NCBI GenBank assembly: GCA_964019695.1
Contig: OZ026517.1
Coordinates: 52,631,672-52,695,671, forward strand
Origin: Loripinus fragilis
Lineage: Eukaryota > Mollusca > Bivalvia > Lucinida > Lucinidae
Reading direction: 5' to 3'
Length of the DNA: 64,000 nucleotides
Positions 10,236 to 64,000 of the stretch are shown piece after piece. Below the pieces are notes generated by a model. The model was not told where the DNA came from. It saw only the letters and a program-made list of their open reading frames with translations, and made no database searches. Each line of letters begins with the position of its first letter. Position 1 is the first letter of the stretch. The position numbers were made by a program, and so were the translations under genes.

Positions 10236-10273
10236 TATCAGAACATCGTCTCCTCCCAGCCAGCATACAGTAT

Positions 10274-10984: not shown

Positions 10985-11214
10985 TGGGCCTCGACGCGAG
11001 ATAACCTGTCTTCGGGAGTTTGCGAACAACAAAGGCGCAGACCAGCCTGCACATCTACACAGTCTGTTCAGCGCCTTTGTTATTCGCCTTTTAGAAACTT
11101 TCATATATTAACTTGCTACTAGCGAAATTTCAGTTTTCTAGCTAGTCGAGGAGACTGGTTTGAGTCTCGGTTTGTCGGAAACCCCAAAGACAGATTTTGT
11201 CGCGTCGAGGCCCA
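10985..11214. mobile_element. MITE family B (TGGGCCTCG ends), copy 1
   Basis: Left end TGGGCCTCGACGCGAGATAA and right end TTTGTCGCGTCGAGGCCCA are inverted copies, with GTCTTCGGG / CCCCAAAGAC just inside. The interior carries AGCCTGCACATCTACACAG, the same type of palindromic core as in family A. Relatives are at 49293-49531 and, decayed, at 12081-12259. Confidence 0.75.
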
Positions 11215-16760: not shown

Positions 16761-18401
16761 TATGGATTGCCATGAAACGGATATGCCTTTTTCTAACCAC
16801 TCTATTTACACACTTATAATCAGAAAACCATCCACACCTGATATATTCAACATTTACTTAAAAATAATGTGAAATATATAAGCATATTTTGTCAAAAATC
16901 ATCGTTTCCATTGTTCAGGTACCCACCCACTAAAGATAAAATCTTAAATCTTAATTTTCTCGAATTTGGCACAGATATTTTTGAGGACTTTTTTATGGTT
17001 ATTTACGTTTCACAACCCTATAGTTTGGTGTTGTATACGTTACTTAATTTCAAATATATTCATATTTAGTACAGTGCTATCACTTGACCATGGGCTGTCA
17101 AAAGACCCCTGAACCTCTGTTGTTCATTGCGTTTACTATAAAAAATCTCATTATATAAGCAACGAACTAATATCTATATAATAGTCCTTCAGCAGATGGA
17201 GGATCACCCTGCAATATCAAAATTAACTACGTTACCCTTAAAATAGGAACACCTATAGTGATTATATCAAATTATTTCTTATTTGTACGTTTCAATATTA
17301 TTATTTTCTATTCAAAGCAAATGACTAGCAGTATAATTTCAGCTTATTGAGGACACCTATTCTTACTGTTATATATGTTACTTTCTTTATGTTCAGTATT
17401 TTAGTGTAATAAAAGCATTATCTAAGTTAAAAACTCTTAGTGGGTATAAAGTGCTGCCATTTGAAAAAAATACTTGAACATAGCATATCAAACACATTGG
17501 AAGTTTTTTTTCTTATTAAATATGTAGACAGCCTTTAAAACTACTTATTTCTACGATCAATTTATTTTTCTTAAAAGGTTAAATGATATTGTTTATCTCT
17601 CCTATGCTTATATTTGTTGCTTAATTGTCAATAGATAATTGATATATACAAGACATTTTCTTCACTATCTACAGCTCAATTTAGATTATACGATAATAGT
17701 GAGCATTTAGTAGCTAATTAAGATATATTATTCCTTGCATAAGCCATAAAACATATATACTCATCAGCTATTGATTACAACAACAGCTAAATTTATTACA
17801 ATCAAGGATAAAAGCTAACTCACAATATTTTAAATTGCAAGTCATTTTAAGGCTAGGTCGAAATCAAGTAAGGAAAAAAATGAAAACATGCATTCATTCT
17901 CTTTTAAATTGCAATAGTTCTGTCCACATATGGTAACCTTCATGCTCACTTCTATGGCTATCATCTCTTTGTATCTAAAGAATGTTAGGTTTGGCTCGAT
18001 TCAATGCCAAGAATAAATCAAATGAGCTAGAAGATTTGATTTTGGTACTTATCGCAGTGTGACACAAAAAGGCTCAGTCGAGCCTATGCAAATGTGTTGA
18101 TTAGGCAGAGTCATCACTGCTCCCATACACAAAGAATAGATGTAGATTGAGTCTCAGACCAGAATTTAGCCCCACTATGTCAGACTGGCCCATATCTGAT
18201 ATAAGTATCAACAATTCATGTGTTGTTCCAAATCTTCAGTTGAGCATTCATATTTTATGACAAAAAATATTTTTTTCTAGGCAATGCAACTGATACTTTA
18301 GCTATTGTCACATAATTAATCTCTGATGTGATATTCAGTATGTGGTATAACTATATCATACACAGCACATATAAAACAAGTGACAGGAGGAGAACTACTA
18401 G
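16761..18401. repeat. Duplication copy 1, block G (diverged)
   Basis: From about 17010 the sequence aligns with 39280-41120, but with far more differences than the gene block. Landmarks are ATACGTTACTTA-TTTCAAATAT, AATGACTAGCAGTATAA and AGCTATTGATTACAAC. At 18030-18190 it carries one diverged copy of the monomer that builds the 52-64 kb array (GGCTCAGTCGAGCCTATGCA). No gene is seen. Confidence 0.5.
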
Positions 18402-38799: not shown

Positions 38800-41674
38800 A
38801 TAGTTATGGCCCAACACTAGGTGCCAGTGGAGTGTTTTTATATCCCCATCAACACTTTTACAAAAGTGAAATACGCTTAACCCACCACAATTTGTAAGGA
38901 AACCGAAAATTACCTCCACGGAACCAGCCCTACCGCTCACTTTTAGTCTGTAGAACATTATTACACAATATTTAAACCAAATGATAGACCGTGAGCTGCT
39001 TTTAAACCCCCTCCCTCCTGGGGAAATTCTGTACACTATGGTTTTCTAAAACAGCACTAAATATGACGCAAAATAAAACATGTTAGCCTCTGGCAGTTGG
39101 GGTGTTACCGTGTTACAGCCATGTTAAATACGTTACCCTATAACAGCTTCCAATCATATTGTGCAAATACAAACCTATACCTAAATCTTATTCATCGACA
39201 TGCTGATGGCATTAAAGGCACTTAATTAAACACAACAAACAGCTAGTATGCACCAAAACAACCTAAGCCCATTATATTGCAGTTATATACGTTACTTACT
39301 TTCAAATATACTACAGTTTAGTGTTGTGCTATCACTAGACCATGAACTGCCAAAATATATCTGAGGGGGAGTTTTATACACTATAATTTTCTAAAACCAC
39401 ATTACATAAGCCACAAAATGATGCATGTTATCTCTTTATGTGTTAAGGCGTTACACTGCAAAAGCAGAGTTTAACACGTTACCCTAAAATAAAAGGAATT
39501 CCTCCAGTATATATATCAAAATGTTTATTATTCTTACATATCAATATTATCTTGTAACTGAAATTAAATGACTAGCAGTATAAGTTGAACAAATTTAGGC
39601 ACCTTTTATTACTGTTACATACGTAACATTTCTTTAAATACATTATTTAAGTTCAATATTAGCATCATAAGTGGTAAAACTGCTTGAGAATGTAGATTAT
39701 TGACATTTGAGGGCTAAATTAAATGAAAAAAAAAAACAAAAAACAATAAAAATTGTCTTTTATAACATTTAAGTGGGATTAAACTCTTACAAAAGCATGG
39801 GTGATGAAAAGGAAGAAACTTGAACTCAAAGCACATAAAATGTCATTTCAATTAAAGAGTGTTTTATCGAATATGTAAACATAACTTACAGTAAACATAA
39901 CTTACAGAAAATGCTTAATTCAACGATCAATTTATGTTTCTTAAATGCTTAAATAATATCATTTATTTGTCGTAAACTTCTGTGTGTTTAGTTTTTTATA
40001 TATGAAATGATACATTGTATATGCAAGACATTTTTCCTCATTGTCTACAGTTCAATTTAGATGAAACATGATATTAACCATGTAGTAGTTTAGTAAGATA
40101 TATTTACCAATACGTAAGTCACAAAATACATATATAGCTTATTAGCTATTGATTACAACTAATTTGAAAACAATCAAGGAAGAAAGTTACCTCACAATTT
40201 CTAAAATTGTAGGTTATTTTAAGCATGGTCGAAACCGAGAAATGAATAATTAAAACAGTCGTTTATCCTTTGAACAAAAACTAGTTTTTTAATCGTAGTG
40301 ATTTCTGACCCATATCTCGCACCCACCATGTAAAACCATTGGTTATATCCCCTATGGTAATGAATCTCTTTATATCTAAAGCATGTCCAGTATACACTTT
40401 ATCTCGCCAACATGCATAGCAAGAATATTTTAAGAGAATATAACACTTGTCATCTGTTTCATCTGGTTATACAATTTTGTGAAGTAATGATATATGACAG
40501 CATAAGTTTTGTTCTAAGGGTTCTTTGTTAGTCTTTTATTTTAAAGGGATAATACAGAGACAAGCTCCCTTGTATTTTTAGTATTGTACTGTAGACATGA
40601 CTAACTGAATGGACTTAAATAATTCATTGGTAATTCTGCTTTGAGTTATTCTGTCAATTATAATAAGTCTAACAATGAACATTTGTTTTACTCATATGTA
40701 GCATTCCAAATGAAAATATGATCATGGTTACAAAATTACTAATCCTACTTATCATTGGCATAATTCAAATCAAGCTAAATAATTATAACTAGTAACGCAA
40801 AGAATAAATCAAATGAGCGAGCACATAAATACTTATCACAGTTTTAAGAAATGAAGGCTCTTCAGGCATGTGTAAATGTGTAGACTCGCCAGAGACTTTG
40901 CTGTCTGCATACGCTAAGTATAGATGTAGACCAGAATTAAGACAGCTGGCTCCACTGCGTCAGCAAAGACAATGCTGGCTTTTGACAATATGTGATCAGT
41001 ACCAAAACCTCATGTGCTGGTCAAATCTTCATTTGAGCACTTTATATATTACACTAAAATAAGATCAGCAATTATTTTTTCATCTATATGTAATAATGTT
41101 CATACTTTTGCTACTGTCAAAGAACAACCGTGCTTCAAAAAGCTCGTTAGATGATACGCTTTATGAAAAACATGGTCTACAAAATTCCCCCTGGGAGGGA
41201 GGGGAGAGCAAAACCAATAGTAGCTAATAGCCTAAAATGAGGACACTTCAATAACCAATTACCTTTGCAAAATCTCTTGGCAAACAGGACACTTTTGGGG
41301 TTCATAGAAAACAGCTGACAACTGCAGCCAACGCAATTTCGTTCGCCTCAAGATGGGCTATATGATATTACCTTTGTTTCACATTTTATTCCAACCTGTA
41401 GAAATATCCACCCTACAAGTTTCTTTAGCTGAAAGTTGCTCATATATCATGATTTTGAATTCAAATGTGATATTTTGGAACCCTATACTAGAATAGCATG
41501 AAATTCGTCTACGCCCAAATTCGAAACTATCCCATATTTTTCTCTCTTTGGTAGCAAACCACTCTTCTCAAAGGCTCCGGATGTTGCCTAAGGGCGCACT
41601 AAGATAATTTCTATTTACGACCATAAAAGCAAATTAGACCATAAAAGCCAATTCTCTTCAGTCTACATGTAAAA
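38800..41674. repeat. Duplication copy 2, blocks F-G (diverged)
   Basis: 38800-38942 matches 13951-14095 closely. 39280-41120 matches 17010-18300 only loosely, including the array-type monomer at about 40826-40960. Beyond 41120 no match to copy 1 was found. No gene is seen. Confidence 0.5.
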
Positions 41675-44330: not shown

Positions 44331-44529
44331 TGCGAAACATCAAATTCAACTCTATACATGTACCTGATTTTGTAACGCAACGTCTGATTGGATAACGTCA
44401 AAAATTGCGACAGTATTTGTTTAGTTTGACGTCATTAATTACGTCACATCTCGTTGGATGGCGTGCGGCTTTATGCGTTTCCCACACTCCAATTCGAGAC
44501 GAAACTGCATTCAAATTGGGAGAACCATA
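44331..44529. other. No gene seen
   Basis: Short stretch between the retroelement and a long hairpin, with TGACGTCA-like sites near 44430. Confidence 0.4.
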
Positions 44530-44668
44530 TTCAAAATTTTCACTTGGGGAGGTAGATCGTCGGATACACGTTCGGAAATCACGTTTTACGGCTCCGCTCT
44601 CACGTCGCCGTAAAACTACATTTCCGACCGTATATCCGACGATATACCTCCCTAAATGAAAATTTTGA
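44530..44668. repeat. Long hairpin, arms of about 60 bp
   Basis: TTCAAAATTTTCACTTGGGG at the left end and its imperfect complement CCTAAATGAAAATTTTGAA at the right end. Inside, GTCGGATACACGTTCGGAAA pairs with TTTCCGACCGTATATCCGAC, and TTTTACGGC pairs with GCCGTAAAA. This is probably a foldback MITE. Confidence 0.75.
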
Positions 44669-44870
44669 ATACAGTTATCCAGTCCACAGTTTCGCAGGAA
44701 TGGCCCTGGGGAAAAAATAAAATAACAAGGGGTCGGGCTGTATGTCCGTCTGTACAATGTTGTTGTTTTTTTTAATTTAATGAAGAAATGTTGGATTGCA
44801 CCTGGCAGAGGCTTAGTCAGCAGTGAGAAGAAATGCATTTTGTAAGTGTTACTGGACCTTACAATCAGAA

Positions 44871-45010
44871 CTGCCTCGACCACTTCCGCGAAATTCCGTG
44901 GAATCAGACCACGGTGTACATCGAGGATCTACTCTGGTAACGCGGGTGATAACGTGACGCTGACGTCACAGAAACCATGTTAACAAGTGTGATCGCAGCA
45001 AAACAATCGG
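44871..45010. repeat. Dispersed repeat S, copy 1
   Basis: GAACTGCCTCG, GGAATCAGACC, GTACATCGAGGATCTA and GACGCTGACGTCA-AGAAACCATG occur in the same order at 50130-50292. The sequence contains a TGACGTCA site. Function unknown. Confidence 0.65.
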
Positions 45011-46754: not shown

Positions 46755-47225
46755 GATGTGATTAAGACAGTGGGCGGAGCTAAAATTCGTTAAACACAGA
46801 ATGTGCTTCACGGAAGACAGTGGGTGGAGCTAAAATTCGTTAAACACAGAATGCGCTTCACGGAAGACAGTGGACGGAGCTAAAATTTCACGAAGAGTGA
46901 AGCAACCTTCATAATGTGAGCCATGACACGTGATTTCCAACAATGTGGCATTTTGTCAAGAGTAGTCTCAGACGAGCCTGTGCAACCCTCTTTTGAGCTT
47001 AGAAATGCCATATTATGTTCAGTCAATAGATTAACACTCATAGAATATTTTAAGCGACTATCAAAGGCTCTGATCAGACTGCGCGTATGCGCAGGCTGAT
47101 CTGAGGCTTTGCTGGTTGCACATGCCACATTGTTGGAAATATCATGCCACGGCTCATTATTGTGATAAAGACAGTGGGCTGAATTAAACGACCATTAGCA
47201 GCTCCGCTCACTATCTTCATCACAA
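46755..47225 (+). promoter_or_regulatory. Upstream repeats with GTGGGCGG boxes, ASB-like gene 2
   Basis: Three direct repeats of about 53 bp begin near 46762, 46815 and 46868, each with ACAGTGGGCGGAGCTAAAAT or a one-base variant. Copy 1 of the gene has two comparable units. A family-A MITE (46917-47156) has since split the block. The inverted partner CCACTATCTTCATCACA (about 47206-47224) is retained as in copy 1. A promoter role is inference. Confidence 0.35.
46917..47156. mobile_element. MITE family A in the upstream region of gene 2
   Basis: Starts TGAGCCATGACACG and ends CATGCCACGGCTCA. Subterminal TTCCAACAATGTGGCA and TGCCACATTGTTGGAA are exact complements. The core GACTGCGCGTATGCGCAG lies at about 47075-47092. 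Gene 1 has no insert at the matching place (about 21964), so it arrived after the duplication. Confidence 0.85.
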
Positions 47226-47259
47226 ATTGAAAGTTAGAAAATAACAATTTATTTCATAT

Positions 47260-49059
47260 TTGAACTTGGTAAATATATTTCTAACATCATTAATGTCTTT
47301 TTCAGACCCGATTTCATTTAGACAAGAAAATCATATGACAATGGAGAAAGGCAAAAGATTCAAAGCTTTGGTAACGAGCCGATTCAACCCGTTTCTGGAT
47401 TACACACATGGCGTTTTCTCTTTTAAAACGGTATTTTATCAATCTATTCACTACTATTATTGCTGCCAATGTAGCTTTGAGCATGAATACATAGACTATG
47501 TCTCTGAGAGAAGAACAATAGATGAAGAAATGTTAGATAGAGTAGCACAAAATATCATCAACGGATATTGCCCGCATGCCAGGATAACTTTTCCTCATAA
47601 CTATATGCTGGAATCTTTGAAACATATTCGGGAAACAAAGGTTCATGCTTTGCATATTGCTGCAGCTTTGGACAAAAGGGCACAGACTCCTGATAGCATG
47701 AGCTCAAAAGATATGAAAAGTGGAATATATGCTTTATATCCAACTGATATAGCAGTCATGAAGAATTGTGATAACTTTCTTAGAAGTTACTACACGCAAA
47801 TCAAAGAGCGATCTGAAGAAAACGCTCCATACTACAGCTACTCAGGTACCCTCAAGTATGGTTTCAGAGCACATGGCAAGGGATGTAATGTTACCTTCAG
47901 AAAACAATCAGCATTGGAAATATGTATCGCTTCCAGGAACAAAGAAGCTTTGAAAATCCTTTTAGACCCTGGTATTATTCACTTCTATATTAGTAAAGGC
48001 CTAGAACTGATCTTGGAACATGGTCGTCTTTCCAACTTTCTAGAAGATATACTTGCATATATTAGAGTATTTCGATGTGAAAACCGAGTTCCTTGTTTAG
48101 AGCGCTGTGCTGTATCAGCTATTGTTTATGAAAACAATTACGTGTTAAGTGTCATTCTTGATGTTTTAGAAACATGTATTTACAGCGATGATGATTTACA
48201 GCGCAATTTCCAATATATATGTGATGTTCTGGGAAAGCCTGGGCAGAAAGAAATCATTTTAAGATACCAACAACCTTACACAAAATCTGGGCCAGATCAC
48301 TTCTTCCGATTGAGAGTGTTACATTATCTTCTACAAAATTATGGTGACAAATATACTTATGAGATCAAAACTGCGTTTAAAGCCCTCACTGAATATGCCA
48401 GTGCTGTTGACCATGTATATGATAACTGTGTTAAGATGACGCCACTTCATAACTGCTTCTATAGATCTTACACCAGCAAGCTAAATCCGAGAATAGCTGA
48501 GCTCCTTTTTCAGTATGGTGCTAATCAAGACCTTCTTGACAGCCATGGTAACACCCCTTTGTTAGTACTGCTTGATTCAGCACCTAAGACAAACATACAG
48601 ACTTTTCTTTACGGATTTGCCTTGCTTATTTGTGAAAATCCTGATGTTGAATTAAATAGATCAGCATTTAAAGCAGCTATAAAACTAGATGAAAGATTTG
48701 AAAGAGATGGCATAGAGTTCTCAATCGAAGGAAATTATATTCTAGATGCTAGAAAACGTTGCATGATCTCAGGTGATGAATTCTGTGAAAAGGTTTATCT
48801 AGGTCCTCTATTAATAGAATGTGGATTTCACCATGACCAAGATGTGATTCAGGGGATAAGATTTGATAAAACTGTTAAGAAATATATAAACTTTTGTTCA
48901 TCAAACCCTCGTTCATTGAAACTCAGTTGTCGAGATACATTGAGGCACCATTTCAAAAGACATGACCTACATAACTACGTTAACAATGTTTTTATGCCAG
49001 AAGGAATAAGAGACTTCATTCTAATAAAACCATACCTATTATTTAATCAACCATCATAA
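47260..49059 (+). CDS. ASB-like protein, ankyrin repeats plus SOCS box (copy 2)
   Basis: The protein is 599 residues, a paralogue of 22071-23864 that by eye is the same at roughly nine residues in ten. Two single-residue insertions explain the length difference: one in Y-S-D-D-D-L-Q near 309 and one in D-H-F-F-R near 349. The BC box is intact (S552-L-x3-C557-x3-L561); the Cul5-box position reads V-F-M-P, again degenerate. Ankyrin-like stretches are conserved, including T-P-L-H-N-C-F and H-G-N-T-P-L. TCTTTTTCAG just before codon 16 is kept, so as in copy 1 the first codons may be intronic and M26/M28 the first methionines of this exon. No stop or frameshift is present, so both copies are probably under constraint. 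The ubiquitin-ligase adaptor role is inferred from the SOCS box; the substrate is unknown. Confidence 0.8.
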   Translation: MNLVNIFLTSLMSFSDPISFRQENHMTMEKGKRFKALVTSRFNPFLDYTHGVFSFKTVFYQSIHYYYCCQCSFEHEYIDYVSERRTIDEEMLDRVAQNIINGYCPHARITFPHNYMLESLKHIRETKVHALHIAAALDKRAQTPDSMSSKDMKSGIYALYPTDIAVMKNCDNFLRSYYTQIKERSEENAPYYSYSGTLKYGFRAHGKGCNVTFRKQSALEICIASRNKEALKILLDPGIIHFYISKGLELILEHGRLSNFLEDILAYIRVFRCENRVPCLERCAVSAIVYENNYVLSVILDVLETCIYSDDDLQRNFQYICDVLGKPGQKEIILRYQQPYTKSGPDHFFRLRVLHYLLQNYGDKYTYEIKTAFKALTEYASAVDHVYDNCVKMTPLHNCFYRSYTSKLNPRIAELLFQYGANQDLLDSHGNTPLLVLLDSAPKTNIQTFLYGFALLICENPDVELNRSAFKAAIKLDERFERDGIEFSIEGNYILDARKRCMISGDEFCEKVYLGPLLIECGFHHDQDVIQGIRFDKTVKKYINFCSSNPRSLKLSCRDTLRHHFKRHDLHNYVNNVFMPEGIRDFILIKPYLLFNQPS

Positions 49060-49292
49060 TTAGTGACGGTATGACACTGTGACTGGCATTGATATCCGTG
49101 TAATGGTGGTTCTACTATATGTTAAAACAAGCAATATTGTGTTAGTTTTAAAATGCTGAAAGAACTGAGCAGCAGTCTTACTAGAGCATTCACTGTTTTC
49201 ACTTATGAAAGTATTTAACCTTTCGTAGACCTGAAAACTCTAAACTGGTACTTTGGCAAACAGTGAAGACCCTGATGAAATGCCACATAATA
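49060..49292. other. 3' flank of gene 2; end of the duplication
   Basis: Matches 23865-24065 through CTTTGGCAAACAG (about 49251-49263), then diverges completely just before the family-B MITE. Confidence 0.6.
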
Positions 49293-49531
49293 TGGGCCTC
49301 ATCGCGAGAAAACCTGTCTTCGGTGGTTTGCGAACAACACAGGCGCAGACCAGCCTGCGCATCCGGGCAGTCTGATCAGCGCCTTTGTTATTCGCTTTTT
49401 TTAAAGTATCATATAAAAAATTGCTACAGGCGAAATTTCAATTCACTAGCTAGTCTATGTAGCTGAGGAGACTGGTTTGAAACTCGCTTAGTCGGAAACA
49501 CCGAAGACATGTTTTCTCGTGACGAGGCCCA
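49293..49531. mobile_element. MITE family B, copy 2
   Basis: Starts TGGGCCTCATCGCGAGAAAA and ends TTTTCTCGTGACGAGGCCCA, flanked by TA on both sides. The interior core AGCCTGCGCATCCGGGCAG lies at about 49350-49368. Its sequence closely follows 10985-11214. Confidence 0.8.
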
Positions 49532-51535: not shown

Positions 51536-52135
51536 AGTTGTAGTTTTACATTACACAAATCATGTAAAAATGGCATGCTTGATAAAGAGGGGGCGGCTGT
51601 TAAAATGCGGAAAAACAATAATCCTAACAGCTCAATAGTGTAAACAATATCTTTTTTTATATACAAAGTAAAGCAGTACAGGAAAATATTGATTAAATAT
51701 AATGCATAATTATTTAAAAAAAAAACTGTATTTCACAGCCGTGAAAATATAAAAAGTTGTATTTCACTGCAGTGAAAATATAAATTGTATTTCAAGGTTG
51801 AATTTGGATGTGCTCTGCTTTCTCTATTGACTTCATTTTGCTCACTTCAGAATTTCAAACGCATGTATTTTTCTTATTGGTGGACAAAAACACAAAGTGA
51901 GGGTATTCATTTTCTTAGTAAGATCGTAAGGAAAATTTTGGTTATCAAATTGGTCAAGGTTTGCTGAAATTTCGCCTTTTCTACTCCTGCTCCTGTGATT
52001 TCAGTTTTGGCCGTCATTGCACACTATGCAACGTCATCATAATTATGACGTAATGTAAGAACGTGTATGACGTCATTGAGTGCAAAAAAATCAATTTTTC
52101 ATTTTTTTTGAATGTATATGCCATTAGTTTCTTCG
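51536..52135. other. No gene seen; CRE-like sites near the array edge
   Basis: AT-rich. Around 52026-52075 are AACGTCATCA, ATGACGTAATG and GTATGACGTCATTG, a cluster of TGACGT-type sites directly before the tandem array. Regulatory meaning is unknown. Confidence 0.4.
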
Positions 52136-55044
52136 CAGCTCATACAAAAAGTGGACATCTATTTACAATATATCCAGGTTTGCCTTGCCAAGAATATAAT
52201 TGGACCAGCTGAATTGAAAATGATACATATATCGCTCATGCGTAGAATCCGTCTTTAAACGTGTATACGCAGTTATCCAGTGGGCTAGATGTCAAATTGT
52301 AGATTCAAATCTACATCTGCACTTTTAAACTTTGTTAATGCGATCAGCGCGGATTTTAGTGGAACTGTGTTGATGCATTGATTAATCTAAGCATTCACTG
52401 TTTGCCTGAAGTAATTAGTAACAAAATCTCACTAACAGACTCAAATGAGCCAACACATAGGATTTTAACAAGAATTGGTACTTATTGCATGAGCAAGCAC
52501 GGATGGCTCAGACGAGCCTGCACAAATGCACAGCCTCATCAGAGCCTTCACTTTTTGTAAACACAATGAATGGAAGTAGAGTATATCTCACGCCTTAACT
52601 AAGGTTTTTAGCCGTACTAATAGCTGAACTTTTATCTGCATCCATACTTTGAATGATGAGTGCCCAACCTTTATCTGCATTTATACTTTGTATGATGAGC
52701 GAGCAACGATAGCTTTAATTGGACTGTGCAGACGCTCAAGATAACCAGAACATTCGCTGTTGCGAAAATGTTAAAAGTAACAAAAATTCATGAACTGGCT
52801 CAACAAAGCCAGCACACCCAATGCTGACGCGATTGATGTTTGTCGCATATGCGAGCAGACAAGGCCCAGATGAGCCTGTGCAAATGTGCGGTCTCAGCAG
52901 AGCCTTCACTGCTTCCATACATAGTATGGAAGTAGATGTGAAGGCGTAGTCTTGTCAGAGCCTTCGCTTCTCGCAGACAAGAAGTATGGTAGTTGGTGAA
53001 ATATCACCCCAAAATTAAGACCTTGAGCCCCTCTAGATAGCGCTGAAACTTCATCTGCGTCCACACTGGCTATGTAAAATGAGTGAGTAGTGATGGATAA
53101 AGTGGGACTATGCGTACGCCTACTAGGCAAATCTGAGTGTTTAGTGTTGTGATTTAGTGATAAGAAACAGAATCTCATGAACTGGTTCAACAGAGACAGT
53201 GCGAGATTTGTTCTTATCGCATATGTTATCAGAAAAGAACAGTCGAGACTGAGCCTTCACTGCTTGCACACAATGTATAGACGTAAATATAAAACTTATG
53301 CCAAAATTAAGACATCTTTTTCCATTAAATAGCCGAACCTATATTTGTTTTCATACTTTTTATATATTGACGAGCAGCAATGACTAATAGGATTATGCGG
53401 AAGCTCAGCTTGATTTACGCACTCAATGGTCGCCAATGTGATCATGAGTAACATCACATTATCATGAAGACACTCAACTGGGCCAGCACACGTGATTTGG
53501 GTACTTATCCAGAATTATCCAACATGCAAACAGTCATAAAAGCCTGCATAGTAATCATGCACGTAGCTTTGTTGCTTGCAAACAACAAAATTAGGCTCAG
53601 ATCAGCCTGCACAACAGCACAGTCTGATCAGCACTTTGTCATTCGCTATCTAAAAGGTAAGTGGCTAGGTTAGATATCTCTTAATTCTTATATTTTGGGT
53701 AGGCTTCAACATGATACAGTCCCTGCGGCTACGCCCTTGCTAATCGTTTGCGTCCAATGGCAGTATCTCGTTTTTATTTACATTCAAATTGTGGGCCAAA
53801 ACTTTTTTGTACACAAATATTGATGATGTGTACAAAGATACCAATAACGTATTTACAAACGTCACTCCATGTACAAGATCCAGTCTAATGTAGTTCATTA
53901 ATCTATGCATATCTCGTGTTTAAATACTGTACTGTGCATAATATCCAAGGTCAGCGAGAATATCATATCATATCATCATAACATTCAAGTAATACAACCA
54001 TTAGCCAGCATATACCAGCACATTTCAATTATCTCATAAAAAGATAGAAGGGGAAAGAGTTATGTAAGCAAGAATCTCAAAACTAAACAAACTCTAGTAG
54101 GGTGTAAGAGAATTAAAAAAAAACGAAAAAAATAAATAAAAAGGCATCAGATGGGGATCTTCTTTTGCAAATCCTCTATGAGGTATTCGCTTGATGACAA
54201 GACTGCATAAATCTATCTCGTCAAGCACAGTCCAAACATATTTGGACATAGTGGGGGTGTATAAATATAGGATGAAACAATTGTTGATCCACTTAGATTA
54301 AGAATATGTCAAATATTAATTAGTAAAGGTGTTACTTAAGCTGTATTTGAAAAATTTTGATGTTTGCCTAGTTGTTTCATTATATACTACAACGGGAATG
54401 AAAGAAACAAATGTAAAAATTCAAATCACTTCATTTTAGAACAAAACTTCTACTTTATTCAATTTTTAGGTTTGTTTGAACAGTGGGTAATGTCCCTTTA
54501 CAATTGTTGATTTCTGTTTAGATGTTAACAATACCTGTAGATTAATGGGCCAGAATAGCCAAGGGGTCTAGTGAGCATTTCAAATTATAAGAACACTCAA
54601 AATCCCAAAGTTGCAGGTTCGATTCCTGCTTATGGCTTGAAAAAAACTAAGAAAAGTTAAAAATCATTTTTTAATGTATTTTTTTTTTCAAATTGTCATT
54701 ATCATTACCATTTTCTTTATTAGAATAAATACAAGTTTAAAACAAGATCTTTGTTTTCCTTCCTACAACAATTCTTATATTATTGTTCTCATAGATGCAA
54801 CAGGTAATGCCATGCTTGGATAACCCATTGACATGTTCACTGCGTAGCCAAAGACCATACCCAGTGATGACCTCTATTTTTCTGACGAAGGACATTGGTG
54901 TGCTCTTATAGCTTTTTCAGGTACTAGCTAGAGCTTATGTTGACAATCTATAGATGAGCATCTCTTAATCTTAGCATGAAGTTTCATGCTTATCTGGGTC
55001 TCTCTGTTATCTGTTTATGCAGGGACATCTCATTTCTAACTTCG
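52136..55044. repeat. Macro-repeat unit 1 (2909 bp)
   Basis: First full unit of the terminal array. Successive landmarks GATCAGCGCGGATTTT fall at 52342, 55237, 58121, 60968 and 63796. Within the unit a monomer of about 350 bp recurs: GAGCCTTCACT lies at 52542, 52900 and 53251 in the same context (a TTATCGCAT or similar box before it and an AGCCTG-GCA core), and a fourth diverged monomer begins near 53370. The rest is an AT-rich spacer with one 88-nt tRNA-like sequence. This unit carries an extra 16 bp or so near its start and is the most diverged. Confidence 0.9.
54549..54636 (+). pseudogene. tRNA-like sequence, unit 1
   Basis: 88 nt with an A-box-like TAGCCAAGGGGTCTAGTG and a canonical B box GGTTCGATTCC in a perfect 5-bp T stem (GCAGG/CCTGC). 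GCCAGAA at the 5' end pairs with TTATGGC at the 3' end with one mismatch. The D-loop spacing and extra length suggest a leucine-type tRNA ancestor. The anticodon arm is degenerate and no anticodon can be assigned. T runs about 40-60 nt downstream could end a Pol III transcript. Confidence 0.5.
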
Positions 55045-57928
55045 CAGCATATACAAAATACAATGTATCCAGGTTTGCCTTGCCAAGAATATAATTGGAC
55101 CAGCTGAATTGAAAATGATACATGTATCGCACATGCGTAGAATCCGTCTTCTGACGTGTATACGCAGTTATCCAGTGGGCTAGATGTCAAATTGTAGATT
55201 CAAATCTACATCTGCACTTTTAAACTTTGTTAATGCGATCAGCGCGGATTTTAGTGGAACTGTGTTGATGCATTGATTAATCTAAGCATTCGCTGTTTGC
55301 CTAAAGTAATTAGTAACAAAATCTCACTAACAGACTCAAATGAGCCAACACATAGGATTTTAACAAGAATTGGTACTTATTGCATGAGCAAGCAGGGATG
55401 GCTCAGACGAGCCTGCACAAATGCACAGCCTCATCAGAGCCTTCACTTTTTGTAAACACAATGAATGGAAGTAGAGTATATCTCACGCCTTAACTAAGGC
55501 TTTTAGCCATACTAATAGCTGAACCTTTATCTGCATCCTTACTTTGAGTGATGAGCGCAGAACTTTTGTCTGCATTTATACTTTGTATGATGAGCGATCA
55601 GCGATAGCTTTAATTGGACTGTGCAGACGCTTAAGTTAACCAGAGCATTCGCTGTTGCGAAAATGTTAAAAGTAACAAAAATTCATGAACTGGCTCAACA
55701 AAGCCAGCACACCCAATGCTGACGCGATTGTTGTTTGTCGCATATGCGAGCAGACAAGGCCCAGATGAGCCTGTGCAAATGTGTGGTCTCAGCAGAGCAT
55801 TCACTGCTTCCATACATAGTATGGAAGTAGATGTGAAGGCGTAGTCTTGTCAGAGCCTTCGCTTCTCGCAGACAAGAAGTATGGTAGTTGGTGAAATATC
55901 AACCCAAAATTAAGACCTTGAGCCCCTCTAGATAGCGCTGAAATTTCATCTGCGTCCACACTTGCTGCGTATAATGAGTGAGTAGTGATGGATATGGTGG
56001 GACTGTGCGTACGCCTACTAGGCTAATCTGAGTGTTTAGTGTTGTAATTTAGTGATAAGAAACAGAATCTCATGATCTGGTTCAACAGAGACAGTGCGAG
56101 ATTTGTTCTTATCGCATATGTAATCAGAAAAGTACAGTCGAGACTGAGCCTTCACTGCTTGCACACAAAGTATAGACGTAAATATAAAACGTATGCCAAA
56201 ATTTAGATATCTTTTTCCCCTAAATAGCCGAACCTATATTTGTTTTCATACTGTGCATATATAGACGAGCAGCAATGACTAATAGGATTATACGGAAGCT
56301 CAGCTTGATTTACGCACTCAATGGTCGCCAATGTGATCATGAGTAACATCACATTATCATGAAGACACTCAACTGGGCCAGCACACGTGATTTGGGTACT
56401 TATCCAGAATTATCCAACATGCAAACAGTCATAAAAGCCTGCATAGTAATCATGCACGTAGCTTTGTTGCTTGCAAACACCAAAATTAGGCTTAGAGCAG
56501 CCTGCACAACTGCACAGTCTGATCAGCACTTTGTCATTCGCTATCTAAAAGGTAAGTGGCTAGGTCAGATATCTCTTAGTTCTTATATTTTGGGTAGGCT
56601 TCAACACGATAAAGTCCCTGTGGCTACGCCCTTGATAATATTTTGCGTCCAATGGCAGAATCTCGTTTTTCATTTACATTCAAATTGTGGGCCAAAACTT
56701 TTGTGTACACAAATATTGATGATGTGTACAAAGATACCAATGACGTATTTCCAAACGTCACTCCATGTACAAGATCCAGTCTAATGTAGTTCATTAATCT
56801 ATGCATCTCACGTGTTTAAATACTGTACTGTGCATAATATCCAAGCTCAGCGAGAATATCATATCATCATAACATTCAATTAATACAACCATTTGCCAGC
56901 ATATACCAGCACATTTCAATTAACTCATAAAAAGATAGAAGGGGAAAGAGTTATATAAGCAAGAATCTCACAACTAAACAAACTCTAGTAGGGTGAAAGA
57001 GAAAAAAGACGAAAAAAATAAATAAAAAGACATCAGATGGGGAACTTCTTTTGCAAACCCTCTATGAGGTATTCGCTTGATGACAAGACCGCATAAATCT
57101 ATCTCGTCAAGCACAGTCCAAAATATTTGGACATAGTGTGGGTGTATAAATATAGGATGAAACAATTGTTGATCCACTTACATTAAGAATACGTCAAATA
57201 TTAATTAGTAAAGGTGTTACTTAAGCTGTATTTGAAGAATTTTGATGTTTGCCTAGTTGTTTCATTGTATACTACAACGGGAATGAAAGAAACAAATGTA
57301 AAAATTCAAATCACTTCTTTTTAGAACAAAACTTCTATTTTATTCATTTTTTAGGTTTGTTTGAACAGTGGGTAATGTCCCTTTACAATTGTTGATTTCT
57401 GTTTAAATGTTAACAATACCTGTAGATTAATGGGCCAGAATAGCCAAGGGGTCTAGTGAGCGTTTCAAATTATGGGAACACTCAAAATCCCAAAGTTGCA
57501 GGTTCAAATCCTGCTAATGGCTTGAAAAAACTAAGTAAAGTTAAAAATTATTTTTAATGTATTTTTTTTTCAAATTGTCATTATCAGTACCATTTTCTTT
57601 ATTAGAACAAATACAAGTTTAAAACAAGATCTTTGTTTTCCTTCCTACAACAATTCTTATATTATTGTTCTCATAGATGCAACAGGTAATGCCATGTTTG
57701 GATAACCCAGGGACATGTTCACTGCGTTGCCAAAGACCATACCCAGTGATGATCTTTATTTTTCTGACCAAGGACATTTGTGTGCTCTTATAGCTTGTTT
57801 TCAGGTACTAGCTAGAGCTTATGTTGATAATCTATAGATGAGCATCTCTTAATCTTAGCATGAAGTTTCATGCTGATCTGGGTCTCTCTGTTATCTGTAT
57901 ATGCAGGGACATGACATTTCCAACTTGG
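55045..57928. repeat. Macro-repeat unit 2 (2884 bp)
   Basis: Direct repeat of unit 1 with scattered substitutions and small indels. Same internal order: four monomer-like segments, a spacer with the tRNA-like sequence, and the TAGCTAGAGCTTATG-type end. The 60- to 70-codon frames shared by the units are by-products of the repeat. Confidence 0.9.
57434..57521 (+). pseudogene. tRNA-like sequence, unit 2
   Basis: Same 88 nt as in unit 1. The B box is changed to GGTTCAAATCC and the anticodon region reads ATTATGGGAAC instead of ATTATAAGAAC. Confidence 0.5.
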
Positions 57929-60775
57929 CAGCTCATACAAAATACAATGTATCCAGGTTCGCCTTGCCAAGAATATAATTGAACTAGCTGAATTGAAAAT
58001 GATAATTGTATCGCACATGCGTAGAATCCGTCTTTTGACGTGTATACGCAGATATCCAGTGGGCTAGATGTCAAATTGTAGCTTCAAATCTACATCTGCA
58101 CTTTTAAACTTTGTAAATGTGATCAGCGCGGATTTTAGTGGAACTGTGTTGATGCATTGATTAATCTAAGCATTCACTGTTTGCCTAAAGTAATTAGTAA
58201 CAAAATCTCACTAACAGACTCAAATGAGCCAACACATAGGATTTTAACAAGAATTGGTACTTATTGCATGAGCAAGCAGGATGGCTCAGACAAGCCTGCA
58301 CAAATGCGCAGCCTCCTCAGAGCCTTCACTTTTTATAAACGCAATGAATGGAAGTAGAGTATATCTCACGCCTTAATTAAGGTTTTTAGCCATACTAATA
58401 GCTAAACCTTTATCTGCATCCATACTTTGAATGATGAGCGAGCAGCGATAGCTTTAATTGGACTATACAGACAGTCAAGTTAACTAGAGCATTCACTGTT
58501 GCGAAAATGTTAAAAGTAACAAAAATTCATGAACTGGCTCAACAAAGCTAGCACACCCAATGCTGACGCGATTGATGTTTGTCGCATATGCGAGCAAACA
58601 AGGCCCAGATGAGCCTGTGCAAATGTGTGGTCTCAGCAAAGCCTTCACTGTTTACATACATAGTATGGAAGTAGATGTGAAGGCGTAGTCTTGTCTGAGC
58701 CTTCGCTTTTCGCAGACAAGAAGTATGGTAGTTGGTGAAATATCACCCCAAAATTAAGACCTTGAGCCCCTCTAGATAGCGCTGAAATTTCATCTGTGTC
58801 CACACTGGCTGTGTATAATGAGTGAGTAGTGATGGATATAGTGGGACTGTGCGTACGCCTACTAGGCTAATCTGAGTGTTTAGTGTTGTGATTTAGTGAT
58901 AAGAAACAGAATCTCATGAACTGGTTCAAAAAAGACAGTGCGAGATTTGTTCTTATCGCATATGTTATCAGAAAAGTACAGTCGAGACTGAGCCTTCACT
59001 GCTTGCACACAAAGTATAGACGTAAATATAAAACTTATGCCAAAATTTAGACATCTTTTTCCCCTAAATAGCCAAACCTATAAATGTTTTCATACTGTGT
59101 ATATATAGACGAGCAGCAATGACTAATAGGATCATACGGAAGCTCAGCTTGATTTACGCACTCAATGGTCGCCAATGTGATCATGAGTAACATCACATTA
59201 TCATAAAGAGACTCAACTGGGCCAGCACACGTGATTTGGGTACTTATCCAGAATTATCCAACATGCAAACAGTCATAAAAGCCTGCATAGTAATCATGCA
59301 CGTAGCTTTGTTGCTTGCAAACAACGAAATTAGGCTCAGAGCAGCCTGCACAACTGCACAGTCTGATCAGCACTTTGTCATTCGCTATCTAAAAGGTAAG
59401 TGGGTAGTCAGATATCTCTTAATTCTTATATTTTGGGTAGGCTTCAACACGATAAAGTCCCAGTTGGCTACGCCCTTGATAATCGTTTGCGTCCAATGGC
59501 AGAATCTCGTTTTTTATTTACATTCAAATTGTGGGCCAAAACTTTTGTGTACACAAATATTGATGATGTGTACAAAGATAACAATGACGTATTTCCAAAC
59601 GTTACTCCATGTACAAGATCCAGTCTAATGTAGTTCATTAATCTATGCATCTCAAGTGTTTAAATACTGTACTGTGCATAATATCCAAGCTCAGCGAGCA
59701 TATCATATCATCATAAAATTCAATTAATACAAACATTAGCCAGCATATACCAGCACATTTCAATTAACTCATAAAAAGATAGAAGGGGAAAGAGTTGTAT
59801 AAGCAAGAATCTCACAACTAAACAAACTCTAGTAGGGTGAAAGAGAATTTAAAAAAATCGAAATAAATAAATAAAAAGGCATCAGATGGGGAACTTCTAT
59901 TGCAAATCCTCTATGAGGTATTCGCTTGATGACAAGACCGCATAAATCTATCTCGTCAAGCACAGTCCAAAAATATTTGGACATAGTGTGGGTGTATAAA
60001 TATAGGATGAAACAATTGTTGATCCACTTACATTAAGAATACGTCAAATATTAATTAGTAAAGGTGTTACTTAAGCTGTATTTGAAGAATTTTGATGTTT
60101 GCCTAGTTGTTTCATTATATACTACAACGGGAATGAAAAAAACAAATGTATTAAATCAAATCACTTCTTTTTAGAACAAAACTTCTATTTTATTCAATTT
60201 TTAGGTTTGTTTGAACAGTGGGTAATGTCCCTTTACAATTGTTGATTTCTGTTTAGATGTTAACAATACCTGTAGATTAATGGGCCAGAATAGCCAAGGG
60301 GTCTAGTGAGCGTTTCAAATTATAAGAACACTCAAAATCCCAAAGTTGCAGGTTCGAATCATGCTAATGGCTTCAAAAACTAAGAAAAGATAAAATTATT
60401 TTTAATGTATTTTTTTTTTCAAATTGTCATTATCAGTACCATTTTCTTTATTAGAATAAATACAAGTTTAAAACAAGATCTTTGTTTTCCTTCCTACAAA
60501 AATTCTTATATTATTGTTCTCATAGATGCAACAGGTAATGCCATGTTTGGATAACCCATGGACATGTTCACTGCGTTGCCAAAGACCATACCCAGTGATG
60601 ATCTCTATTTTTCTGACGAAGGGCATTTGTGTGCTCTTATAGCTTTTTCAGGTACTAGCTAGAGCTTATGTTGACAATCTATAGATGAGCATCTCTTAAT
60701 CTTAGCATGAAGTTTCATGCTTATCTGGGTCTCTCTGTTATCTGTATATGCAAGGACATGACAGTTCCAACTTCG
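57929..60775. repeat. Macro-repeat unit 3 (2847 bp)
   Basis: Direct repeat of the preceding unit. It lacks about 40 bp relative to unit 2 in the first monomer junction (after ATACTTTGAATGATGAGCG, near 58440), and one G is missing in GCAGGATGGCTC, which shifts the 60-codon frame seen in other units. Confidence 0.9.
60284..60371 (+). pseudogene. tRNA-like sequence, unit 3
   Basis: Same 88 nt. B box GGTTCGAATC is followed by A instead of C, which breaks one pair of the T stem. Confidence 0.5.
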
Positions 60776-63603
60776 CAGCTCATACAAAACACAATGTATC
60801 CAGGTCCGCCTTGCCAAGAATATAATTGGACCAGCTGAATTGAAAATGATACATGTATCGCACATGCGTAGAATCCGTCTTTTGACGTGTATACGCAGTT
60901 ATCTAGTGGGCTAGATGTCAAATTGTAGCTTCAAATCTACATCTGCACTTTTAAACTTTGTTAATGCGATCAGCGCGGATTTTAGTGGAACTGTGTTGAT
61001 GCATTGATTAATCTAAGCATTCACTGTTTGCCTAAAGTAATTAGTAACAAAATCTCACTAACAGACTCAAATGAGCCAACACATAGGATTTTAACAAGAA
61101 TTGGTACTTATTGCATGAGCAAGCAGGGATGGCTCAGACAAGCCTGCACAAATGCGCAGCCTCATCAGAGCCTTCACTTTTTGTAAACACAATGAATGGA
61201 AGTAGAGTATATCTCACGCCTTAACTAAGGTTTTTAGCCATACTAATAGCTGAACCTTTATCTGCATCCATACTTTGAATGATGAGCGAGCAGCGATAGC
61301 TTTAATTGGACTGTACAGACGCTCAAGTTAACAAGAGCATTCGCTGTTGCGAAAATGTTAAAAGTAACAAAAATTCATGAACTGGCTCAACAAAGCCAGC
61401 ACACCCAATGCTGACGCGATTGATGTTTGTCGCATATGCGAGCAGACAAGGCCCAGATGAGCCTGTGCAAATGTGCGGTCTCAGCAGAGCCTTCACTGCT
61501 TACATACATAGTATGGAAGTAGATGTAAAGGCGTAGTCTTGTCAGAGCCTTCGCTTCTCGCAGACAAGAAGTATGGTAGTTGGTGAAATATCACCCCAAA
61601 ATTAAGACCTTGAGCCCCTCTAGATAGCGCTGAAACTTCATATGCGTCCACACTGGCTGTGTATAATGAGTGAGTAGTGATGGATATAGTGGGACTGTGC
61701 GTATGCCTACTAGGCTAATCTGAGTGTTTAGTGTTGTGATTTAGTGAGAAGAAACAGAATCTAATGAACTGGTTCAACAGAGACAGTGAGAGATTTGTTC
61801 TTATCGCATATGTTATCAGAAAAATACAGTCGAGACTGAGCCTTCACTGCTTGCACACAAAGTATAGACGTAAATATCAAACTTATGCCAAAATTTAGAC
61901 ATTTTTTTCCATTAAATAGCCGAACCTATATTTGTTTTCATACTGTGTATATATAGACGAGCAGCAATGACTAATAGGATTATGCGGAAGCTCAGCTTGA
62001 TTTACGCACTCAATGGTCGCCAATGTGATCATGAGTAACATCACATTCTCATGAAGAGACTCAACTGGGCCAGCACACGTGATTTGGGTACTTATCCAGA
62101 ATTATCCAACATGCAAACAGTCATAAAAGCCTGCATAGTAATCATGCACGTAGCTTTGGTGCTTGCAAACAACAAAATTAGGCTCAGACCAGCCTGTACA
62201 ACTGCACAGTCTGATCAGCACCTTTGTAAGTGACTAGGTCAGATATCTCTTAATTCTTATGTTTTGGGTAGGCTTCAACATGATAAAGTCCCTGCGGCTA
62301 CGCCCTTGATAATCGTTTGCATCCAATGGCAGAATCTGGTTTTTATTTACATTCAAATTGTGGGCCAAAACTTTTGCGTACACAAATATTGATGATGTGT
62401 ACAAAGATACCAATGACATATTTCCAAACGTCACTCCATGTACAAGATCCAGTCTAATGTAGTTCATTAATCTATGCATCTCACGTGTTTAAATACTGTA
62501 CTGTGCATAATATCCAAGCTCAGCGAGCATATCATATCATCATAACATTCAATTAATACAAACATTAGCCAGCATATACCAGCACATTTCAATTAACTCA
62601 TAAAAAGATAAAATGTAAAGAGTTATATAAGCAAGAATCTCACAACTTAACAAACTCTAGCAGGGTGAAAGAGAATTAAAAAAAAACGAAATAAATAAAT
62701 AAAAAGGCATCAGATGGGGAACTTCTTTTGCAAATCCTCTATGAGGTATTCGCTTGATGACAAGACCGCATAAATCTATCTCGTCAAGCACAGTCCAAAC
62801 ATATTTGGACATAGTGTGGGTGTATAAATATAGGATGAAACAATCGTTGATCCACTTACATTAAGAATACGTCAAATATTAATTAGTAAAGGTGTTACTT
62901 AAGCTTATTTGAAGAATTTTGATGTTTGCCTAGTTGTTTCATTATATACTACAACGGGAATGAAAGAAACAAATGTAAAAATTCAAATCACTTCTTTTTA
63001 GAACAAAACTTCTATTTTATTCAATTTTTAGGTTTGTTTGAACAGTGGGTAATGTCCCTTTACAAGTGTTGATTTCTGTTTAGATGTTAACAATACCTGT
63101 AGATTAATGGGCCAGAATAGCCAAGGGGTCTAGTGAGCGTTTCAAATTATAAGAACACTCAAAATCCCAAAGTTGCAGGTTCGAATCCTGCTAATGGCTT
63201 GAAAAACTAAGAACAGTTAAAAATTATTTTTAATGTATTTTTTTTTTCAAATTGTCATTATCAGTACCATTTTCTTTATTAGAATAAATACAAGTTTAAA
63301 ACAAGATCTTTGTTTTCCTTCCTACAAAAATTCTTATATTATTGTTCTCATAGATGCAACAGGTAATGCCATGTTTGGATAACCCATGGACATGTTCACT
63401 GCGTTGCCAAAGACCATACCCAGTGATGATCTCTATTTTTCTGACGAAGGGCATTTGTGTGCTCTTATAGCTTTTTCAGGTACTTGCTAGAGCTTATGTT
63501 GACAATCTATAGATGAGCATCTCTTAATCTTAGCATGAAGTTTCATGCTTATCTGGGTCTCTCTGTTATCTGTATATGCAAGGACATGACATTTCCAACT
63601 TCG
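60776..63603. repeat. Macro-repeat unit 4 (2828 bp)
   Basis: Direct repeat, by eye closest to unit 3 and sharing its short first junction. About 20 bp are missing after GATCAGCACCTTTG (near 62225) compared with other units. Confidence 0.9.
63111..63198 (+). pseudogene. tRNA-like sequence, unit 4
   Basis: Same 88 nt with the fully canonical B box GGTTCGAATCC and an intact T stem. This is the best-preserved promoter-like core of the four. Confidence 0.5.
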
Positions 63604-64000
63604 CAGCTCATACAAAACACAATGTATCCAGGTTCGCCTTGCCAAGAATATAATTGGACCAGCTGAATTGAAAATGATACATGTATCGCACATGCGTAGA
63701 ATCCGTCTTTTGACGTGTATACGCAGTTATCCAGTGGGCTAGATGTCAAATTGTAGCTTCAAATCTACATCTGCACTTTTAAACTTTGTTAATGCGATCA
63801 GCGCGGATTTTAGTGGAACTGTGTTGATGCATTGATTAATCTAAGCATTCACTGTTTGCCTAAAGTAATTAGTAACAAAATCTCACTAACAGACTCAAAT
63901 GAGCCAACACATAGGATTTTAACAAGAATTGGTACTTATTGCATGAGCAAGCAGGGATGGCTCAGACAAACCTGCACAAATGCGCAGCCTCATCAGAGCC
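63604..64000. repeat. Macro-repeat unit 5, cut by the window end
   Basis: Continues the array in the same phase through the first monomer (AGCCTCATCAGAGCC at the last base), so the array extends past the window. Confidence 0.9.

What the first reader, a model, noticed from the sequence alone, without database searches (positions are those of the whole stretch)
52136..64000. Higher-order tandem array: 2.8-2.9-kb units built from about 350-bp monomers
At least four full units and the start of a fifth lie head to tail, with periods 2909, 2884, 2847 and 2828 bp. Inside each unit, four diverged monomers of about 350 bp form a second level (GAGCCTTCACT at 52542, 52900 and 53251 in unit 1). Single diverged monomers also lie at about 18030-18190 and 40826-40960, so the macro-array seems to have been built from a dispersed element and then amplified as a block. 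Units 3 and 4 share deletions, which suggests recent unit-by-unit expansion at the right side.
Basis: seen in the sequence. Interest (0 to 1): 0.75.

Follow-up and report, generated by a model that had tools for sequence, protein, structure and literature searches.

The report
Chromosome-specific tandem arrays of composite repeats
The repeat block at the window's right edge is the start of a 106-kb satellite-like array with sister arrays on five other chromosome-sized contigs; each copy carries four old hairpin-type repeats and a small tRNA-like segment with a promoter-like pattern, so it is mostly an ordinary kind of satellite DNA with one feature worth testing.

Summary
The array starts at window 52131 and runs 106 kb (to 158211 in window-extended coordinates): 35 complete units plus one truncated, consensus 2,848 bp, units 4-36 about 99% identical to it. 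Related arrays lie on contigs C6, C11, C13 (two), C16 and C19; C16 and C6 pieces are 80-88% like C4.

The monomer half (unit 146-1458) is related to a repeat dispersed genome-wide. The other half was found almost only in arrays and carries a tRNA-like sequence with Pol III-type A and B boxes in 30 of the 35 complete C4 units.

The left edge keeps ancestral indel states shared with C16 (one also with C6), while the core is homogenised. This fits unequal crossing-over or conversion. 'Expansion at the right side' holds only in that the left edge is oldest.

Best reading: a non-coding composite macrosatellite. A bolder, testable reading is an array of Pol III RNA genes, laid out like rodent 4.5SH: the tRNA-like ~200 bp is the best conserved block between arrays, but support is modest and within-array polymorphism is not reduced.

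The parts
52131..64000 (+). Part of the array inside the window; it continues to 158211 in window-extended coordinates (G000:C4:52683802-52789882)
   Evidence: Self-BLAST; unit BLAST against fetched C4 sequence
52131..52163 (+). Left-edge remnant of a preceding unit, with a segment (GGACATCTATTTACA at 52153) found nowhere else in the fetched C4 sequence but present in C16 (8 matches in 50 kb) and in the C6 unit (1)
52164..55058 (+). Unit 1 (edge unit, 96.9% to consensus)
55059..57942 (+). Unit 2 (97.4% to consensus)
57943..60789 (+). Unit 3 (97.5% to consensus; first unit with the 39-bp short state)
60790..63617 (+). Unit 4 (99.3% to consensus)
63618..64000 (+). Start of unit 5 (continues outside the window; carries a 2.3-kb insertion at 65418-67708 extended)
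52309..53659 (+). Monomers M1-M4 of unit 1 (325, 389, 313 and 324 bp as extracted; boundaries set by hand from self-matches, approximate)
52627..52705 (+). 39-bp tandem duplication in unit 1 (also in unit 2, TRF 55521-55596, and in the C16 consensus; single in units 3-36 and in the C6 unit)
54549..54637 (+). tRNA-like sequence of unit 1: A box 54556-54566, B box GGTTCGATTCC 54616-54626, first T-run of a possible terminator at about 54667
   Evidence: Rfam match seen in the L001 copy
57434..57522 (+). tRNA-like sequence of unit 2 (end approximate): A box at 57441, B box changed (GGTTCAAATCC)
60284..60372 (+). tRNA-like sequence of unit 3 (end approximate): A box at 60291, B box changed (GGTTCGAATCA)
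63111..63199 (+). tRNA-like sequence of unit 4: A box 63118-63128, B box 63178-63188, first T-run at about 63227
18042..18169 (+). Dispersed monomer relative outside the array
40866..40930 (+). Weak dispersed monomer relative (E 4.4e-4)

Best explanation
This is a non-coding composite macrosatellite family. An ancestral ~2.8-kb unit formed from four successive copies of an old interspersed repeat joined to a ~1.4-kb segment containing a tRNA-like, Pol III-promoter-bearing sequence. The unit was tandemly amplified, and the family came to occupy at least six chromosome-sized contigs (C4, C6, C11, C13 twice, C16, C19). Each array then evolved as its own subfamily by unequal crossing-over and/or gene conversion between nearby units: the core is homogenised to ~99% while the left edge on C4 escapes and keeps ancestral variants. 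C16 units lack about one monomer (consensus ~870-1290), probably by recombination between monomers. SHOWN: array extent, unit structure, positional monomer clustering, array-specific sequence, edge relics, dispersed monomer relatives, A/B boxes. INFERRED: the exchange mechanism, the order of events, lack of coding function, how copies moved between chromosomes. (The readings below overlap in part, so the probabilities do not sum to 1.)
For: Array of 106,081 bp with 35 complete units and one truncated. Units 4-36 are 98.6-99.3% identical to consensus, units 1-3 96.9-97.5%. Mean identity falls with unit offset from 0.992 to 0.984. A 55-bp C4 pattern (<=3 mismatches) hits 34 times genome-wide, all in the C4 array. 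Collinear C4-C16 matches 80-88%, two C4-C6 pieces 82 and 87%; one C6 piece against C13/C19 90-91% over 688 bp. Monomer clans by position across C4, C16 and C6. Ancestral states at the left edge: a segment shared with C16 and C6 and a 39-bp duplication shared with C16. Four array ORFs tested had no Pfam hit; the longest open segment is 84 aa in the consensus and 145 aa in any unit. No Rfam family reached its gathering score in the window.
Against: The ~200-bp tRNA-like block is better conserved between arrays than the rest (17 of 204 against 240 of 1272 variable columns, Fisher P 1.4e-4), which a purely neutral satellite would not need; block permutation gives only P 0.06. The right edge (unit 36) is not diverged (99.0%), so the edge effect is one-sided. 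No reads or transcripts could be examined. Apart from 50 kb of C16, the other arrays were sampled by 2,001 bp (C6) and 181 bp each (C11, C13, C19).
Confidence: 0.68

Rival explanations
1. The arrays are multicopy gene arrays for a short Pol III-transcribed, tRNA-related RNA of about 115-125 nt (one gene per unit, ~200 genes), comparable in layout to rodent 4.5SH RNA arrays. The monomers and the rest are spacer.
For: A box (consensus TRGYNNARNGG) and B box (GGTTCGANTCC) always 71 bp end to end in 30 of 35 complete C4 units (unit 36 is truncated before the block); 30 such pairs in 184 kb of C4 sequence, all in the array and none on the minus strand; 0 pairs in 300 dinucleotide shuffles of the window; 8 pairs in the 50 kb of C16. 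First T-run 116-123 nt from the start in the three units printed. The 5' part (41 bp, <=3 mismatches) has 82+114 genomic matches, control 0; all 100 rows listed lie in arrays, 96 were not listed. Both boxes are exact in the C4 consensus and the C11, C13 and C19 copies and in 6 of 8 C16 copies; the sampled C6 unit has an A-box change, but 12 of 13 listed C6 rows do not. The block 2260-2459 is the most conserved 200 bp between C4, C16 and C6.
Against: Rfam tRNA score 23.8, below the cut-off of 29; ARAGORN finds no tRNA in the window or in 14 extracted copies. Within the C4 array the block is as polymorphic as the rest (19 of 204 against 120 of 1272, P 1.0). Conservation is P 0.004 by simple and 0.06 by block permutation, and the block was chosen after seeing the data. 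No compensating changes were seen by eye, and the C11 copies have T-stem mismatches. Units 2, 3 and 14 have a broken B box, and units 32 and 35 lack the A box.
Confidence: 0.22
2. The arrays are centromeric or pericentromeric satellite DNA with a chromosome-specific higher-order structure.
For: Chromosome-specific homogenised arrays with positional monomer clusters resemble centromeric higher-order repeats (recalled). The C4 and C6 arrays lie mid-contig (46% and 57%; positions, lengths).
Against: The C16, C11, C13 and C19 arrays lie at about 30%, 89%, 11% and 9.5% of their contigs (positions; lengths). C13 has two arrays in opposite orientation ~210 kb apart. All rows listed are on six contigs, though three of these lists were capped. 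No CENP-B-like box with at most one core mismatch (motif recalled). Arrays are about 20-170 kb long.
Confidence: 0.05
3. The unit is, or derives from, a mobile element that formed tandem arrays (Helitron/Helentron rolling circle, or tandem LTR/TRIM elements), as reported for the most abundant oyster satellites.
For: The monomer half is related to a dispersed repeat: a 25-bp motif has 8,869 matches at <=3 mismatches, control 1, and relatives lie beside other repeats in the window. The 11 most abundant C. gigas satellites inspected are associated with Helitrons (PMC8268682, passages).
Against: The whole unit was not seen as a dispersed element: the non-monomer half has one weak hit (E 0.002) in 78 kb of flanks; the best 40 of 758 candidates for unit 1's 54020-55010 are all in the C4 and C6 arrays (capped); listed tRNA-like pattern rows lie only in arrays. 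No coding domain. I recognised no element ends at the array borders (by eye). Helitron boxes could not be tested (no Repbase).
Confidence: 0.2
4. Assembly artefact: one or few real units multiplied by the assembler.
For: Long near-identical arrays are error-prone (general knowledge), and no reads could be checked.
Against: 217 singleton and 96 shared variants among units 4-36. Three different insertions with inverted ends, each in one unit. Related but distinct arrays on five other contigs.
Confidence: 0.03

Closest known systems
Higher-order-repeat satellites (alpha-satellite type; features recalled)
   Same: Unit of several diverged monomers; monomers at the same position cluster across units and arrays; homogenised core and diverged edge
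   Different: Only about half of the unit is monomeric; the rest is array-specific sequence with a tRNA-like block. No CENP-B-like box. No evidence of a centromeric position.
Long-monomer bivalve satellite DNAs (C. gigas units 21-3287 bp, PMC8268682 passages; Limnoperna fortunei units 22-2891 bp, PMC12818792 passages)
   Same: Unit length is in the known range; mixed with repeat-derived sequence
   Different: Homology to any of those families was not tested (no sequences at hand). The term 'higher-order' does not occur in the main text of either paper.
Rodent 4.5SH RNA gene arrays (PMC7279448 passages; PMC10137851 abstract start in listing)
   Same: Hundreds of copies; each copy of a small Pol III gene sits in a kb-sized tandem repeat; A and B boxes
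   Different: 4.5SH derives from 7SL RNA; the sequence here is tRNA-like. Transcription here is unknown. Unit 2.5-2.9 kb against 4-5 kb.
Tandem Cassandra retroelement arrays (PMC7215508, search listing only)
   Same: Long tandem arrays of non-coding units with a Pol III-type sequence (5S in Cassandra: recalled)
   Different: No LTR structure noticed here; tRNA-like rather than 5S

Membership tests
Higher-order-repeat satellite | Head-to-tail multi-monomer units, highly similar to each other | tested here: met
Higher-order-repeat satellite | Monomers at the same position in different units cluster together | tested here: met
   M1 0.998 (15), M2 0.754 (15), M3 1.0 (11), M4 1.0 (13). The tree held 10 of 36 C4 units, 4 C16 units, 1 C6 unit and 4 dispersed copies (58 sequences); pieces below 180-200 bp and the C6 M4 were left out.
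Higher-order-repeat satellite | Unit made wholly of monomers | tested here: not met
   Monomer region is about 146-1458 of 2848
Satellite/macrosatellite DNA | Long non-coding tandem array with a kb-scale unit | tested here: met
   106 kb, 2,848-bp consensus unit; no Pfam hit in the 4 array ORFs tested; longest open frame in any unit 145 aa
Centromeric satellite | CENH3 binding / primary constriction | not testable with these tools
   No ChIP or cytology data
Centromeric satellite | CENP-B-like box | tested here: not met
   No match with at most 1 core mismatch on either strand of the C4 consensus (motif recalled)
4.5SH-like tandem Pol III RNA gene array | Internal A and B boxes and a T-run terminator in each unit | tested here: met
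   A+B in 30 of 35 complete C4 units, 8 pairs in the fetched C16 50 kb; T-run seen in the 3 units printed and the copies aligned
4.5SH-like tandem Pol III RNA gene array | A transcript is made | not testable with these tools
   No RNA data
4.5SH-like tandem Pol III RNA gene array | Purifying selection on the gene | tested here: inconclusive
   Less divergence between arrays (Fisher P 1.4e-4; simple permutation 0.004; block permutation 0.06) but no reduction of polymorphism within C4 (P 1.0)
tRNA gene | Recognisable tRNA by covariance model or ARAGORN | tested here: not met
   23.8 bits < 29 in L001; ARAGORN 0
tRNA-derived SINE | Dispersed copies of the tRNA-like head outside the arrays | tested here: inconclusive
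   No such copy among the rows listed, but 96 of the 196 matches were not listed, and copies with more than 3 mismatches were not sought
Helitron/Helentron-carried satellite | Helitron end boxes flanking the repeats | not tested

The most novel reading that the evidence does not exclude
The family on six chromosome-sized contigs is a dispersed multigene family of about 200 Pol III genes for an undescribed tRNA-related small RNA, kept in homogenised kb-scale tandem units. The dispersed-repeat monomers are the carrier of the array, and selection on the RNA gene keeps the arrays alive.
Probability: 0.2. Interest if true: 0.7.

Novelty: new member of a known kind. Interest (0 to 1): 0.4.

Why it matters
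It is a clear case of a higher-order satellite unit built from relatives of an old interspersed repeat, with relic sequence at one edge that preserves ancestral indel states, and with sister arrays on several chromosomes, so the order of monomer duplication, spread and homogenisation can be read directly. If the tRNA-like block is transcribed, the arrays would be a further example of a small Pol III RNA gene amplified inside long tandem repeats; 4.5SH in rodents has that layout (PMC7279448, passages).

Tried and rejected
Protein-coding tandem genes: the longest open segment is 84 aa in the consensus and 145 aa in any unit; the four array ORFs tested, a 145-aa one among them, had no Pfam hit. 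Known structured RNAs: no Rfam family at gathering score in the window; weak SNORD45, Plastid-ycf2 and mir-5879 matches at E 1.5-3.7 are taken as chance. A first impression that unit positions 1-1850 vary much less than 1851-2848 was an artefact of counting the truncated unit 36 as gaps; counted as singleton variants the halves are alike (7.24 against 8.32 per 100 sites). Conserved hairpins as the functional part: the M1 and M2 hairpins are as variable between arrays as the rest (11 of 49 and 11 of 53). Centromere: little support. I first took the extra left-edge segment to be absent from C16, because my C16 units had been cut at that junction; a recheck found it 8 times in C16, which makes the ancestral reading stronger. 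Naming the species: one literature search on assembly size did not settle it. Literature: searches, seen as listings with abstract starts, showed no title on such an array; that is weak evidence that it is not in print.
Full report
WHAT IS THERE. The window is G000:C4:52631672-52695671 of a 1.99-Gb genome in 685 contigs. Self-BLAST confirms head-to-tail repetition from about 52131 to the window's end. Fetching the sequence to the right and aligning one unit shows that the array runs on to 158211 in window-extended coordinates: 106,081 bp, 35 complete units plus unit 36, which is cut at about position 1881 of unit 1, all in one orientation; nothing further was found up to 184000. Three insertions interrupt it, at 65418-67708, 71849-73437 and 95576-96288. 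Each has inverted ends and what look like short target duplications, so they are probably later transposon insertions.

UNIT ANATOMY (consensus coordinates). The consensus is 2,848 bp. Positions ~146-1458 hold four diverged monomers (325, 350, 313 and 325 bp as cut; boundaries set by hand from self-matches). M1, M2 and M4 share a ~44-bp palindrome-like core (342-385, 660-704, 1391-1435); in M3 it is partly missing. Positions ~1459-2848 are not monomeric. At 2343-2431 lies a tRNA-like sequence: in one fetched copy (L001) it scores 23.8 bits against Rfam tRNA, below the gathering score of 29, and ARAGORN does not recognise it. It has an A box TAGCCAAGGGG at 2350 and a B box GGTTCGAATCC at 2410. 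A-plus-B pairs (TRGYNNARNGG, 25-60 bp, GGTTCGANTCC) occur 30 times in the 184 kb of C4 sequence, all inside the array, and never in 300 dinucleotide shuffles of the window; they are in 30 of the 35 complete units, always 71 bp end to end. Failing units are 2, 3 and 14 (B box changed) and 32 and 35 (A box deleted); unit 1's B box differs from consensus but still fits. In the three units printed, the first T-run lies 116-123 nt from the start of the tRNA-like sequence.

HOMOGENISATION AND EDGES. Units 4-36 are 98.6-99.3% identical to consensus; units 1-3 are 96.9, 97.4 and 97.5%. Mean identity falls with distance from 0.992 (neighbours) to 0.984 (12 apart) among units 4-35. Units 1 and 2 carry a 39-bp tandem duplication; the other 34 units carry the short state. 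The C16 consensus has the duplication, the C6 unit does not. The left-edge remnant has a segment (GGACATCTATTTACA at 52153) found once in the fetched C4 sequence but 8 times in 50 kb of C16 and once in the C6 unit. So the left edge keeps ancestral states that the core has lost. The right edge is not diverged (unit 36, 99.0%); it is cut in mid-unit.

THE FAMILY. DNA and pattern searches of the same genome found arrays on C6 (57.487-57.530 Mb, +, ~2.83-kb spacing), C11 (88.186-88.335, -, ~2.475 kb), C13 (10.427-10.449, - and 10.657-10.684, +, ~2.84 kb), C16 (28.283-28.451, -, ~2.48 kb) and C19 (6.849-6.896, +, ~2.835 kb where regular). Genome-wide counts with at most 3 mismatches: 181 for a 35-bp pattern (72+109, control 0), 120 for the 3' part of the tRNA-like block (71+49, control 0) and 196 for its 5' part (82+114, control 0). 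These outputs are capped: one search lists 100 of 196 rows. The rows listed lie in the arrays above; the unlisted ones were not seen. An exact 35-place pattern listed in full gave 36 matches, all in the C13, C16 and C19 arrays. A C4-specific 55-bp pattern hits 34 times, all on C4. The C16 array is rearranged and interrupted, and its units lack consensus ~870-1290; collinear C16 matches are 80-88% like C4, and four C16 units are 93-98% alike. Two C6 pieces are 82 and 87% like C4; a 688-bp C6 piece is 90-91% like C13 and C19.

MONOMER ORIGIN. A 25-bp motif composed from dispersed copies has 8,869 genomic matches at up to 3 mismatches (4361+4508, control 1+0); this counts a motif, not whole monomers. 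In 77,919 bp of flanks the monomer region has hits merging into 9 loci at E<=1e-4, with none in 20 shuffles or the reversed control, while the non-monomer half has one weak hit (E 0.002). In a tree of 58 sequences (10 of 36 C4 units, 4 C16 units, 1 C6 unit, 4 dispersed copies; short pieces dropped) each position forms its own clan across contigs: M1 0.998, M2 0.754, M3 1.0, M4 1.0. M4 aligns poorly to the others (mean identity about 0.50-0.55), so its register is uncertain. Hence the four-monomer unit existed before the C4, C16 and C6 arrays diverged.

IS ANY PART UNDER SELECTION? With the C4 consensus, the C16 consensus and one C6 unit aligned over 1,476 ungapped columns, positions 2263-2466 have 17 of 204 variable columns against 240 of 1,272 elsewhere (Fisher P 1.4e-4). 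The best 200-bp window, 2260-2459, is significant by simple permutation (P 0.004) but not by 20-bp block permutation (P 0.06). Polymorphism within C4 units 4-36 is not reduced there (19 of 204 against 120 of 1,272, P 1.0); divergence against polymorphism gives P 0.027. The block was chosen after seeing the profile. Tested alone, the 27-33-bp A-box and B-box parts are not significant (P 0.06 and 0.28), the whole 89 bp gives P 0.02, and the M1 and M2 hairpins are not conserved above average. This is a lead for a Pol III RNA gene, not a demonstration.

MECHANISM. Most likely: duplication of a dispersed repeat next to a tRNA-like segment made a composite unit; unequal exchange amplified it; copies reached other chromosomes by an unknown route; each array was then homogenised separately by exchange between nearby units, leaving relic sequence at the left edge on C4. 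Exchange, order and route are inferred.

COMPARISON WITH THE KNOWN. It behaves like other higher-order satellites but is not made wholly of monomers. Long satellite units are known in bivalves: 21-3287 bp in C. gigas, where the 11 most abundant families inspected are Helitron-associated (PMC8268682, passages), and 22-2891 bp in Limnoperna (PMC12818792, passages). Rodent 4.5SH RNA genes, hundreds of copies in 4-5-kb tandem repeats (PMC7279448, passages), are the closest layout for the RNA-gene reading.

Noticed in passing
22071-23864 and 47245-49059: Two long open frames (597 and 604 aa) within a 2.1-kb repeat 93% identical; the first has a SOCS box match (E 9.8e-5, just under the Pfam cut-off) and a weak ankyrin match; the second was not scanned. 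Relatives of the array monomer core lie beside the second copy (47053-47129, 49323-49408); it may be a gene captured in a repeat.
   Followed up: partly
9988-11214, 46914-47157, 49292-49531, 1171-1401: Related ~200-250-bp repeats, partly inverted to each other, several with a GATCAGCCTG...GCAGTCTGATC palindrome; possibly ends of a short element.
   Followed up: partly
42235-44928 (minus): Broken open frames that look like a Penelope-type reverse transcriptase (from memory; no significant Pfam match).
   Followed up: no
65418-67708, 71849-73437, 95576-96288 (window-extended coordinates, in L017 and L020): Three different insertions with inverted ends inside the array, each in one unit; apparent target duplications of 8 bp, TTA-like and TA, read by eye.
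   Followed up: partly
G000:C13:10427288-10448681 (-) and 10656804-10684485 (+): Two arrays of the same family in opposite orientation about 210 kb apart, as if split by an inversion.
   Followed up: no
L029-L033 (C16:28410000-28459999): The C16 array is rearranged, with kb-size gaps and partial units, unlike the tidy C4 array.
   Followed up: partly
12270-12755: A short tandem array of a 179-bp unit, 2.7 copies, 95% matches.
   Followed up: no
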